The notes under the pieces: generated by a model
Told to the model about the DNA's origin: nothing
What the model saw: only the letters and a program-made list of their open reading frames with translations
Database searches by the model: none
Part shown: piece after piece, positions 3,142-61,682 of the stretch
How positions within the stretch are numbered: position 1 is the stretch's first letter
Layout: the number at the start of each line of letters is the position of its first letter
Translations under genes and position numbers: made by a program
Assembly (NCBI RefSeq): GCF_024497955.1
Contig: NZ_JANHKP010000002.1
Coordinates: forward strand, 1 to 64,000
Length of the DNA: 64,000 nucleotides
Source: Streptomyces sp. C10-9-1
Lineage (GTDB): Bacteria > Actinomycetota > Actinomycetes > Streptomycetales > Streptomycetaceae
Direction of reading: 5' to 3'

Positions 3142-3230
3142 TTATCCACAGGCTGTGTGGATGAAAGACCAGATGCTGTGGAGAACTCTCCCGAACCTGT
3201 GCACGGAGCAGGGGACAGCACTGTGGACAA
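3142..3230. promoter_or_regulatory. DnaA-box group upstream of dnaB
   Basis: The 426-bp gap between dnaB and the MATE gene holds no gene but contains two perfect DnaA boxes, TTATCCACA at 3142-3150 and the reverse of TTGTCCACA at 3222-3230, with two weaker reverse boxes between them at 3156-3164 (TCATCCACA) and 3177-3185 (TTCTCCACA). DnaA binding here could control dnaB or titrate DnaA. The box sequences are seen directly; function is inferred. Confidence 0.6.
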
Positions 3231-32543: not shown

Positions 32544-32552
32544 TGTGGACAA
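32544..32552 (-). other. Perfect DnaA box near the parA start
   Basis: Reverse copy of TTGTCCACA in the region between the chosen parA start and rsmG. It may link initiation to parAB expression. Confidence 0.6.
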
Positions 32553-36481: not shown

Positions 36482-36524
36482 TGTGGACAACAACTTGAAC
36501 CGCACGGGTCGGCCTGACTACCGT
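36482..36524 (+). promoter_or_regulatory. DnaA box and promoter of dnaA
   Basis: A perfect reverse DnaA box (TTGTCCACA) at 36482-36490 is followed by TTGAAC (36495-36500), an 18-base spacer and TACCGT (36519-36524), a plausible housekeeping promoter. DnaA bound to the box would touch the -35 region, a simple autorepression layout. The rest of the 360-bp rpmH-dnaA gap shows no gene. Confidence 0.65.
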
Positions 36525-59293: not shown

Positions 59294-60196
59294 ATGGACC
59301 AGGAGCCAGGCAGCCCGCAGAATCCGCGGGGAGCGCACGAGCTGCCGCGCTGCTATCGGCACCCGGAGCGGGAGACGGGCATCCGGTGCACCCGCTGCGA
59401 GCGCCCCATCTGCACGGAGTGCATGATCAGCGCCTCGGTCGGCTTCCAGTGCCCGGAGTGCGTGCGCACCGGCTCCGGCACGGGCCATTCACCGGGCGCC
59501 AGCATGCCGCGGACCCTCGCCGGCGGCGCGGTTGCCTCGGACCCGAGGCTGGTCACCAAGGTGCTCGTGGGGCTCAACGCCGCGGTCTTCCTGCTGACGC
59601 TGGTCCTCGGCGACCAACTCGTGCACCGGCTGACCCTGATCGGCGGCGCCTACGACCCGCAGCTCCGCGACGTGGTGGGGGTGGCCGCCGACGGAGAGTG
59701 GTACCGCCTGGTCACCTCGGTGTTCCTGCACCAGGAGATCTGGCACATCTTCTTCAACATGCTGCTGCTGTGGTGGTTGGGCGGCCCGCTGGAGCAGGCG
59801 CTCGGCCGGGTGCGCTTCCTCGCCCTCTACCTGGTCTCCGGCTTCGCGGGCAGCGCCCTCACCTATCTGATCGCCGCGCCGCAGCAGGGGTCGCTGGGGG
59901 CCTCGGGGGCGGTCTACGGGCTCTTCGGGGCGACCGTCGTCCTGATGCGGAGGATGCGGCAGGACCTGCGCCCCGTCGTGGTCCTGCTGGCGATCAACCT
60001 GGTGATCACGTTCGTGGCGCCGGGGATCGCCTGGGAAGCCCATGTCGGCGGTCTGGTCGCCGGGGCGGCGATCGCGTACGGGATGGTGCACGCGCCGTCC
60101 GGCCGCAAGCGGGTCCCCGTGCAGTTCGCGACGTGCGCTCTGGTGCTCCTGGTCGCGACCGGTGTCGTCGTCGGCCGGACGATGGCGCTCACCTGA
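59294..60196 (+). CDS. Rhomboid protease with N-terminal zinc finger
   Basis: An intramembrane serine protease of 300 aa. The N-terminal 50 residues contain a B-box-like zinc site (CYRHPERETGIRCTRCERPICTECM, FQCPECV). The membrane domain has about six or seven helices with FFNMLLLWWLG, the active-site GASGAVYGLFG (Ser204) and the second-residue histidine in WEAHVGGL (His250). The natural substrates are unknown. It is followed by a group of DnaA boxes. Confidence 0.93.
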   Translation: MDQEPGSPQNPRGAHELPRCYRHPERETGIRCTRCERPICTECMISASVGFQCPECVRTGSGTGHSPGASMPRTLAGGAVASDPRLVTKVLVGLNAAVFLLTLVLGDQLVHRLTLIGGAYDPQLRDVVGVAADGEWYRLVTSVFLHQEIWHIFFNMLLLWWLGGPLEQALGRVRFLALYLVSGFAGSALTYLIAAPQQGSLGASGAVYGLFGATVVLMRRMRQDLRPVVVLLAINLVITFVAPGIAWEAHVGGLVAGAAIAYGMVHAPSGRKRVPVQFATCALVLLVATGVVVGRTMALT

Positions 60197-60224
60197 GCGG
60201 TTCCGCGGGTGTCGCTCCCCGGCT

Positions 60225-60436
60225 TTCCCCACAGTTGTCCACAGTGGGTGGCGGATCTTGTGCGCCGTGTGGGGGACGCCAGTGCCCCTCGCTGTTGACC
60301 TGGAGTTTTCCGGTCAGGGTGAGGGGCACGGTGGTTCACCGGCATGGGTGAAGCGGTCAGATCGGCGTCAACGGAGTGTTGGTTATCCACAGATCTTCTG
60401 ACCTTTTCCCCGGGCTGTGGATAACCGTGTGGACAA
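60225..60436. other. DnaA-box cluster between the rhomboid gene and crgA
   Basis: Four perfect DnaA boxes: 60235-60243 (TTGTCCACA), 60383-60391 (TTATCCACA), 60416-60424 (reverse TTATCCACA) and 60428-60436 (reverse TTGTCCACA). A weaker one is at 60225-60233 (TTCCCCACA). All lie in the 320-bp gap between the rhomboid gene and crgA, about 21 kb from oriC. A DnaA-box cluster outside oriC that acts on replication has been reported in S. coelicolor; whether this is the same locus I cannot confirm. Confidence 0.85.
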
Positions 60437-60516
60437 CCGGTGCGGCCTCGGCGCGGCAGAGCGCCGCCGCCCGGGTGCCCGTCAGCCGGGACCGGCCGCG
60501 GCCGGCCGCGGAGACG

Positions 60517-60774
60517 CTACTTCCACTGCGTGGAGACGCCGAAGCCCGCGGCGATGAAGCCGAAGCCGGCGACGATGTTCCAGTTGCCGAAGCTCTGGAC
60601 CGGCAGCTCGCCCTCGGTCACGTAGAAGAGGACGATCCAGACCAGGCCGATGAGGAACAGCGCGAGCATGACCGGCGCGACCCAGCTGCGGCTCGTCAGC
60701 TTGATGCTCGCTGCCTGCTTGGCGGCAGGCGGCGGCGTGAAGTCGGCCTTCTTGCGGATACGTGACTTCGGCAC
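60517..60774 (-). CDS. crgA: Cell division protein CrgA
   Basis: An 85-residue protein with two membrane helices (about 32-52 and 64-80) and a basic N-terminus ([16 protein letters not shown]). CrgA coordinates growth and septation in Streptomyces and inhibits early FtsZ rings. It is transcribed divergently from the DUF881 gene and its downstream end faces the DnaA-box cluster. Confidence 0.95.
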
Positions 60775-60914
60775 GAGGGACTCTCCTGTCGATGCGCTGC
60801 GTGACCGCGCAGATAACGGTGGCTGGCGCCGCTTCGGGCGTGAGGGGGACCACGGCCTCCCCCGGGCGTCCGTTAGCGTAGTGCTTCCGCGGTGCCGAAG
60901 GAGATAAGGGTACG

Positions 60915-61682
60915 TTGAGCAATTCCGCCGACTCTCCCCGAGGGCCGGTCAGCCGCTTCACCTGGCGACCGGTCCGCCTGCTCACGGCTGCCGTCTTCGC
61001 CCTGGCGGGCGTCATCTTCGTGACCAGTTTCAACACCGCCAAGGGTACGGACCTGCGCACCGATGCGTCCATGCTCAAGCTGAGCGACCTGATCGAGCAG
61101 CGCAGCACGGACAACAAGGACCTGGAGGAGTCCACCGCCGCCGTACGAGCGGACGTGGAGGCGCTCGCCGAACGCGACGACGCCTCGACCGGGTCCCAGG
61201 ACGCCGAGCTCAGGGCCCTGGAGAAGGCGGCCGGCACCGAGGAGCTCACCGGCGACGCGGTCACGGTGACCCTCGACGACGCCCCGCCGAACGCCCGCGC
61301 GGCCCCCGGCTACCCCGAGCCCCAGGCCAACGACCTGGTGATCCACCAGCAGGACCTCCAGGCCGTGGTCAACGCGCTGTGGCAGGGAGGCGCCGAGGGC
61401 ATCCGCGTCATGGACCAGCGGCTCATCTCCACCAGTGCCGTGCGCTGCGTGGGCAACACCCTGATCCTCCAGGGGCGCGTCTACTCGCCGCCCTACAAGG
61501 TCACCGCCATCGGTGACCAGGAGGCGCTGCGCAAGGCGCTCACCGCGTCACCCGCGATCCAGAACTACCAGCTCTACGTGAAGGCCTACGGCCTCGGCTG
61601 GAAGGTCGAGGAGGACGGCAAGGTCACCCTGCCCGGCTACACCGGCACCGTCGACCTCCAGTACGCCGAGCCCGCCGGTTAG
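60915..61682 (+). CDS. DUF881 membrane protein
   Basis: A 255-residue protein starting with TTG. It has one N-terminal membrane anchor ([18 protein letters not shown], about 23-40), a coiled coil (about 55-110) and the conserved C-terminal DUF881 domain ([62 protein letters not shown]). DUF881 genes are usually found beside crgA or fts genes in actinobacteria, which suggests a division or wall role. Confidence 0.9.

What the first reader, a model, noticed from the sequence alone, without database searches (positions are those of the whole stretch)
60225..60436. Perfect DnaA-box cluster 21 kb from oriC
Four perfect DnaA boxes in two orientations lie within 202 bp between the rhomboid gene and crgA, while I found no perfect box in oriC itself. 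Boxes 60416 and 60428 are 3 bp apart and may form a high-affinity pair. Such a locus could titrate DnaA or act as a datA/DARS-like element, and it also sits next to crgA, which controls septation. A similar cluster has been reported in S. coelicolor; I cannot confirm that it is this one.
Basis: partly seen in the sequence, partly recalled or inferred. Interest (0 to 1): 0.7.

Follow-up and report, generated by a model that had tools for sequence, protein, structure and literature searches.

The report
Ancient DnaA-binding site beside crgA
Between two genes 21 kb from the replication origin, this Streptomyces-type chromosome carries four perfect copies of the short sequence recognised by DnaA, the protein that starts DNA replication; boxes of this kind stand at the same place in all 17 genera of its family that were sampled and in most other actinomycete families sampled, so the spot likely binds DnaA and would help control DnaA and the start of replication rather than its neighbour genes.

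Summary
In detail: four perfect DnaA boxes in 202 bp (60235-60436), of 37 TTRTCCACA in 6.43 Mb. They lie where the 3' ends of rhomboid and crgA converge, so in neither promoter. All 80 relatives fetched keep at least three TTNTCCACA boxes; all 17 Streptomycetaceae genera read keep at least two. In four relatives crgA is inverted about 5 kb away and the boxes stay with rhomboid. Spacing changes between boxes cluster near whole helical turns. Beyond the family, 30 of 40 loci (16 of 24 families) have a perfect box within 300 bp after crgA: 51 boxes in 12 kb against 10 in 191 kb. In Mycobacterium the matching place, Rv0010c-Rv0011c (Rv0011c is crgA), is bound by DnaA in vitro and in vivo, and site variants resemble dnaA mutants (PMC7738170); its authors saw no counterpart elsewhere. 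Best reading: an old DnaA-control locus acting on DnaA in trans (titration or datA/DARS-like), not a crgA switch. Binding in Streptomyces and the sign of the effect are untested. The cluster is probably one of three described for S. coelicolor in 2006 (recalled; paper not held).

The parts
60197..60516 (.). whole element: 320-bp intergenic region between the convergent 3' ends of rhomboid and crgA
   Evidence: ORFs; Pfam Rhomboid and CrgA; box order kept in 76 of 76 rows with both genes in this arrangement
60235..60243 (+). DnaA box 4 (TTGTCCACA), rhomboid side
   Evidence: last box in all 76 rows, third base G 65, A 10, T 1
60383..60391 (+). DnaA box 3 (TTATCCACA), all nine letters the same in 76 rows
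60416..60424 (-). DnaA box 2 (TTATCCACA), half of the tandem double box
60428..60436 (-). DnaA box 1 (TTGTCCACA), 3 bp from box 2
   Evidence: a second + strand box is perfect in 32 of 76 rows
60225..60233 (+). near-box TTCCCCACA (one mismatch), possibly a weak DnaA site
60392..60412 (+). conserved stretch next to box 3 (starts GATC; then TTCTGACCTTTTCCCC); with the last base of box 3 it reads AGATCT
   Evidence: GATC directly beside box 3 in 75 of 76 rows; matched sequences listed
60282..60329 (.). hairpin between box 4 and box 3, predicted on both strands; likely the shared end of transcription of the two genes (no T run)
   Evidence: (126-nt stretch, z -4.46 and -4.34)
59294..60196 (+). rhomboid-family protein gene
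   Evidence: Pfam PF01694
60517..60774 (-). crgA, cell-division protein gene
   Evidence: Pfam PF06781
38492..39577 (.). oriC region between dnaA and dnaN (reference point; 14 boxes within one mismatch, one of them a perfect TTNTCCACA)
3142..3230 (.). second DnaA-box cluster, upstream of dnaB (3 perfect TTNTCCACA)
   Evidence: 30 of 30 Streptomycetaceae genomes searched have at least 2 boxes there
36482..36490 (-). perfect box in the gap upstream of dnaA (rpmH side; rpmH named by eye)

Best explanation
This is a non-coding cluster of four perfect DnaA boxes (a tandem pair 3 bp apart on one strand, two more boxes on the other strand) that is likely bound by DnaA in the cell and would act on DnaA itself, holding or switching it soon after oriC has fired, rather than on the genes on either side. 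Inferred mechanism: the double box and box 3 nucleate a DnaA complex; boxes 3 and 4, kept near whole helical turns, would come onto the same face of the DNA so that the complex can close over the hairpin between them; [quoted passage not shown] Shown here: the boxes, their number, their conservation across the family and class, their independence of crgA, the spacing pattern. Shown by others for the matching place in Mycobacterium: DnaA binding in vitro and in vivo. Not shown: binding in Streptomyces, the helical contact, and whether the site lowers (titration, datA-like) or raises (DARS-like) DnaA activity. I put titration/datA-like at about 0.5 and a DARS-like or other activity switch at about 0.2.
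For: 37 TTRTCCACA in the genome, 11 of them in the first 89 kb of this contig against 0.5 expected. Order +,(+),-,- of perfect TTNTCCACA in 76 of 76 rows with the rhomboid-crgA gap: 44 with three, 32 with four; the 5 rows set aside also have three boxes. 348 of 392 genomes of the genus match TTATCCACAN{15,45}TGTGGATAA, reversed control 0 in the rows shown; 5 of the 44 without it were opened and all 5 have a cluster with another spacing or third base. At least two boxes between crgA and rhomboid in 70 of 70 family loci read, 17 of 17 genera. Class: perfect box within 300 bp after crgA in 30 of 40 loci, 51 boxes in 12,000 bp against 10 in 191,495 bp of the same loci, 0.1 expected from genome density; with one mismatch allowed 38 of 40 loci, 108 boxes in 12,000 bp against 66 in 191,495; 500 scrambled patterns hit on average 0.15 loci, at most 12. 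crgA inverted away in four relatives, cluster still at rhomboid. Net indels between box 3 and box 4 phase at 10.5 bp, p 7e-5. Mycobacterium: DnaA pull-down and ChIP at Rv0010c-Rv0011c, oriC, rpmH-dnaA, upstream of dnaB and one more place (PMC7738170, sections 7, 9, 10, 12); Rv0011c is crgA (PMC3989709, passage). The window has boxes at four of these five places.
Against: No binding or mutant data for this organism. In M. tuberculosis the dnaA variants did not change the initiation rate, and dnaA and site variants made cells longer, as low-activity dnaA alleles do elsewhere, which fits a DnaA-activating site at least as well as titration. Four boxes are few to titrate an abundant protein (general knowledge). 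The helical phasing weakens across the family (11 merged values, Rayleigh p 0.04, and p 0.08 against the window's own phase) and one Streptomyces indel of -48 bp is out of phase. Ten of 40 class loci lack a perfect box, two of them even a one-mismatch box.
Confidence: 0.62

Rival explanations
1. DARS-like site: the complex on the boxes exchanges ADP for ATP on DnaA and so promotes initiation.
For: M. tuberculosis site variants lengthen cells as dnaA variants do, and low-activity dnaA alleles do so in other bacteria. The core of E. coli DARS is three DnaA boxes (PMC4585315, passages), and a double box 3 bp apart is reported at DARS2 (PMC11317965, passages), as here.
Against: Three papers say in passing that the S. 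coelicolor clusters repress untimely initiation. No accessory-protein site was tested here.
Confidence: 0.2
2. DnaA acts here as a transcription factor for crgA or rhomboid and so couples replication to septation.
For: A perfect box stands just behind crgA in 30 of 40 class loci, and CrgA affects septation (PMC4255298, passages).
Against: The boxes lie past both stop codons; in four relatives crgA is about 5 kb away and the boxes stay with rhomboid; in 21 of 40 class loci rhomboid is absent or ends more than 600 bp from crgA, and 15 of these 21 still have a perfect box within 300 bp, so no one neighbour is constant; dnaA mutants of M. tuberculosis do not change expression of either flanking gene (PMC7738170).
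Confidence: 0.06
3. The inverted boxes are only the arms of a transcription terminator, or DnaA bound there is a roadblock that ends convergent transcription.
For: Convergent genes; perfect 12-nt inverted repeat; orientation-dependent termination at DnaA boxes in E. coli (title of a 1989 reference seen, paper not read).
Against: Another hairpin lies between box 4 and box 3 and could do the job. The arms keep the DnaA 9-mer and show no paired changes: third bases of first + box and box 3 are A/A 74 and G/A 2. Box 4 and the tandem box are not arms of this repeat. Some class loci have same-strand boxes without a perfect inverted partner (L159, L161, L167, L168). A DnaA roadblock itself is not excluded.
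Confidence: 0.08
4. A helper of oriC: a remote part of the origin that loads or hands over DnaA to oriC.
For: oriC has mostly weak boxes and one perfect TTNTCCACA, the cluster four perfect ones.
Against: PMC3411110 (passages) speaks of minichromosomes that replicate from oriC; that they lack this cluster is my inference. No unwinding-type sequence was looked for.
Confidence: 0.05

Closest known systems
DnaA-binding site Rv0010c-Rv0011c of Mycobacterium (PMC7738170)
   Same: Non-coding DnaA boxes directly 3' of crgA (Rv0011c), inverted boxes, one of five strong DnaA sites together with oriC, rpmH-dnaA and upstream of dnaB, places that also carry boxes in this window.
   Different: Downstream neighbour is Rv0010c rather than rhomboid; the paper describes a palindrome of two box-like sequences in a cluster of scored sites rather than four perfect boxes; no Streptomyces link was drawn in the sections read.
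DnaA-box clusters of Streptomyces coelicolor (Smulczyk-Krawczyszyn 2006, not held; recalled as H69, H24, D78)
   Same: Clusters of DnaA boxes said by later papers to repress untimely initiation. Recalled cosmid names would put H69 at crgA, H24 at dnaB, D78 at serS-pheA; this genome has clusters at all three places.
   Different: Identity of the loci could not be checked. The serS-pheA cluster was found within 600 bp upstream of serS in 25 of 30 Streptomycetaceae and within 1 kb in 0 of 29 other class genomes; the crgA and dnaB ones reach across the class.
E. coli datA
   Same: DnaA-box cluster outside oriC.
   Different: datA has five boxes and an IHF site (PMC4585315, passages); no IHF-type site was tested here.
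E. coli DARS1/DARS2
   Same: Core of three boxes; a double box 3 bp apart is reported at DARS2.
   Different: Nucleotide exchange untested; E. coli DARS2 needs IHF and Fis (PMC4585315, passages).

Membership tests
Non-origin DnaA-box cluster | several consensus DnaA boxes within a few hundred bp, beyond chance | tested here: met
Non-origin DnaA-box cluster | bound by DnaA in vivo | not testable with these tools
   only shown for the matching place in Mycobacterium (PMC7738170)
crgA-linked DnaA site (Mycobacterium type) | boxes directly 3' of crgA | tested here: met
   60235-60436, crgA ends at 60517; 30 of 40 class loci
crgA-linked DnaA site (Mycobacterium type) | companion sites at oriC, rpmH-dnaA and dnaB | tested here: met
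   boxes at 36482 and 3142-3230; in oriC 14 within one mismatch, one perfect
crgA-linked DnaA site (Mycobacterium type) | companion site at Rv3843c-RVnc0040 | tested here: inconclusive
   serS-pheA cluster in this genome; that these genes lie near Rv3843c is recalled; only 1 kb upstream of serS was read in 29 other class genomes, no box
crgA-linked DnaA site (Mycobacterium type) | mutation mimics dnaA mutants | not testable with these tools
   -
datA | IHF-type bending site and stimulated DnaA-ATP hydrolysis | not testable with these tools
   no biochemical test; conserved non-box letters exist
DARS | core of three boxes | tested here: met
   at least three in 81 of 81 Streptomyces-set rows, but only two perfect in 8 of 70 family loci; arrangement not compared letter by letter with DARS
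DARS | release of ADP from DnaA | not testable with these tools
   -
DnaA-controlled promoter | boxes in a promoter of a regulated gene | tested here: not met
   gap between convergent 3' ends; 0 sigma-70-type promoter-like sites in 59900-61000, 0.1 expected by chance, so the scan adds little

The most novel reading that the evidence does not exclude
One inherited locus: the Streptomyces crgA cluster and the 'cryptic' M. tuberculosis DnaA site are the same ancient element, fixed behind crgA since early in the Actinomycetes and, together with the dnaB-upstream site, the class's own counterpart of datA/DARS. Its boxes are held on one face of the helix, so it works as a closed DnaA complex and not as loose decoy sites.
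Probability: 0.5. Interest if true: 0.82.

Novelty: new member of a known kind. Interest (0 to 1): 0.62.

Why it matters
How actinomycetes limit replication to the right moment is less well known than in E. coli (general knowledge). A conserved non-coding site that can be removed in harmless Streptomyces makes it testable whether DnaA is controlled by chromosomal sites in this class. It also gives the mycobacterial site, reported as having no obvious correspondence in other species, a likely counterpart in a second large group, and says that the flanking genes are probably not its target.

Tried and rejected
The spacer method (longest minus-strand ORF) cut many gaps short; replaced by rhomboid homology. 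One search found no crgA because its pattern asked for ATG; mended. One search counted boxes upstream of serS without turning the loci (13 of 30); one search turns them (25 of 30) and is the one used. Of the 5 misses two have boxes 1.1-1.4 kb upstream, one has a single box at 1.2 kb, two none in the locus, and one of these matched serS weakly. In one search, 5 of 29 serS matches were weak (E above 1e-14) and only 1 kb was read. In one search the 200 scrambles did not exclude the pattern itself and one reached 30 loci; one search repeats with exclusion (500 scrambles, mean 0.15, top 12 for NTTATCCAC, which overlaps the true box by a shift). Rfam finds two tRNAs in the window and nothing at this site. 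The terminator scan finds none in 59900-61000, the hairpin having no T run.

Rejected: control of crgA (inversions, position); simple RNA hairpin (no paired changes); chance (controls above). A helical-phase claim for the whole family is kept weak: 21 distinct spacings give R 0.548, Rayleigh p 0.0018, but p 0.025 when the period is scanned, p 0.04 after merging near-equal values by hand and p 0.08 against the window's phase. The 14 indel sizes were read by hand from the tree, which counts 14 class changes; that tree is a quick one with 20 of 76 inner branches open.

Papers: the 2006 S. coelicolor paper is not held, and a search for D78 with DnaA boxes and Streptomyces found nothing. That nobody has joined the Streptomyces and mycobacterial sites rests, whose listings were partly cut (20 of 78, 20 of 120, 20 of 47,720 and 25 of 69 shown), and on the sentence in PMC7738170; it is a statement about this library only.

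Full report
What is there. The window is contig 2 of a 6.43-Mb genome. Of the 80 nearest CrgA relatives fetched, 79 are titled Streptomyces and one Microtetraspora glauca. Between the rhomboid gene (59294-60196, +) and crgA (60517-60774, -) lie 320 bp with four perfect DnaA boxes, two per strand, and one near-box. Read from crgA: box 1 and box 2 in tandem, 12 bp start to start (3-bp gap); box 3 inverted, 33 bp on; box 4, same strand as box 3, 148 bp further. Both genes end here, so the site is in no promoter. TTRTCCACA is rare: 37 copies against 5 of the reversed control. Other groups are upstream of dnaB (3142-3230), in the gap upstream of dnaA (36482, single), between serS and pheA on contig 16, at 34.5 kb on contig 16, and at 88.9 kb on this contig.

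Conservation in the genus. Of these plus the window, 76 have rhomboid in the expected place, and all 76 have three (44) or four (32) perfect TTNTCCACA in the same order and orientation. The five set aside also have three boxes: L017 runs into other sequence after box 3 and shows no rhomboid; in L009, L038, L049 and L051 the segment with crgA is inverted, crgA lies about 5 kb off, and the boxes remain 3' of rhomboid with spacings of 147-148 and 43-55 bp. A pattern search found the inverted TTATCCACA pair in 348 of 392 genomes of the genus, control 0; 5 of the 44 misses were opened and have the cluster. Beyond the boxes, GATC directly beside box 3 is in 75 of 76 rows, and GGGGAAAA and TTGACGCCGG blocks nearby are conserved, most columns at 0.6 to 0.99, while much of the spacer drifts.

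Family. CrgA is in 101 of 101 family genomes searched. I read 70 loci, from 62 of these 101 genomes and all 17 genera: every one has at least two perfect boxes between crgA and the end of rhomboid (two 8, three 28, four 33, five 1), many with the tandem pair and inverted box 3.

Spacing. In Streptomyces the box 3-box 4 distance falls in classes 138, 147-150, 156-160, 167-170 and 191, with one 101. On a quick tree of 79 rows the class changes 14 times, most rows being 148/149. The 14 net indels, read by hand, keep phase at 10.5 bp (mean cosine 0.65; p 7e-5 against random shifts of up to 5 bp), 13 of 14 within a quarter turn of whole turns, -48 being the exception. Across the family the effect is weaker (p 0.002 to 0.08 by treatment). 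I infer that boxes 3 and 4 tend to face the same way; no contact was shown.

Class. Of 148 class genomes 141 have CrgA, 11 of them from the window's own genus. Forty loci outside the family (of 130 such genomes; 24 families) were fetched. Thirty have a perfect box within 300 bp after crgA: 51 boxes in 12,000 bp against 10 in the other 191,495 bp. These genomes hold 1,835 boxes (reversed control 1,007) in 205.9 Mb, so 0.11 would be expected. Allowing one mismatch, 38 of 40 loci and 22 of 24 families have one. In 21 of the 40 loci rhomboid is absent or ends over 600 bp away, and 15 of these still have a perfect box behind crgA. Upstream of dnaB, 30 of 30 family genomes have at least two boxes (81 in 18 kb, 0 in 85 kb elsewhere) and 22 of 30 class genomes at least one (46 in 21 kb, 3 in 77 kb). 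The serS-pheA cluster is in 25 of 30 family genomes and, within 1 kb, in 0 of 29 others. So the crgA and dnaB sites look old, the serS-pheA site younger.

Direct evidence elsewhere. In M. [quoted passage not shown] ChIP-seq in M. smegmatis finds homologues of the same five; gel shift confirms Rv0010c-Rv0011c; site variants lengthen cells like dnaA variants; neither flanking gene changes in dnaA mutants; the authors see no obvious correspondence in other species for this site (PMC7738170, sections 7, 9, 10 and 12 read). Rv0011c is crgA (PMC3989709, passage). This window has boxes at four of the five places. I take the crgA site to be the same locus; shared position and boxes support this, but short boxes could also have been regained.

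Mechanism. E. coli DnaA binds mainly pairs 2-3 bp apart (PMC11317965, abstract and passages), S. coelicolor DnaA binds a single box only weakly (PMC4285127, passages), and E. coli boxes gather near oriC, which favours titration (PMC12371093, abstract and passages). Three papers report in passing that S. coelicolor clusters repress untimely initiation (PMC5742627, PMC4585315, PMC10950094, passages). A DnaA complex that works in trans and is duplicated early fits this. Its sign is open: mycobacterial variants look like reduced DnaA activity, which points to activation.

Novelty. The kind (non-origin DnaA-box clusters) is known, this cluster probably too in S. coelicolor (recalled), and the mycobacterial site is published. 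New here, as far as the searches named show, are the class-wide link, the family-wide layout, its independence of crgA and the spacing rule.

Noticed in passing
window 3142-3230: Second DnaA-box cluster upstream of dnaB; a 35-bp pair in 26 and a 44/45-bp pair in 18 of 30 Streptomycetaceae loci, and boxes in 22 of 30 other class genomes.
   Followed up: partly
G000 contig 16, 43969-44259 (L082 16970-17260): DnaA-box cluster between serS and pheA, present in 25 of 30 Streptomycetaceae and, within 1 kb, in none of 29 other class genomes; probably the D78 cluster of S. coelicolor (recalled).
   Followed up: partly
G000 contig 16, 34455-34534 (L082 7456-7535): Three perfect TTGTCCACA within 80 bp; place and genes not examined.
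   Followed up: no
G000 contig 2, 88910-88958 (L081 9911-9959): Two perfect boxes in opposite orientation near the start of an AsnC/Lrp-like regulator gene and a branched-chain keto-acid dehydrogenase-like operon (names from reading the ORFs, not searched).
   Followed up: no
window 60391-60396: AGATCT overlaps box 3; GATC is beside box 3 in 75 of 76 rows. PMC4285127 (passage) names AGATCT as another DnaA-recognised sequence, so far exclusive to E. coli; meaning here unknown.
   Followed up: no
L009, L038, L049, L051: crgA lies inverted with its 3' end facing a PknB-like kinase gene (kinase named by reading), in two pairs of relatives on the tree.
   Followed up: partly
window 32544-32552: A lone perfect TTGTCCACA some 80 bp from a parS-like GTTTCACGT sequence, by eye.
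   Followed up: no
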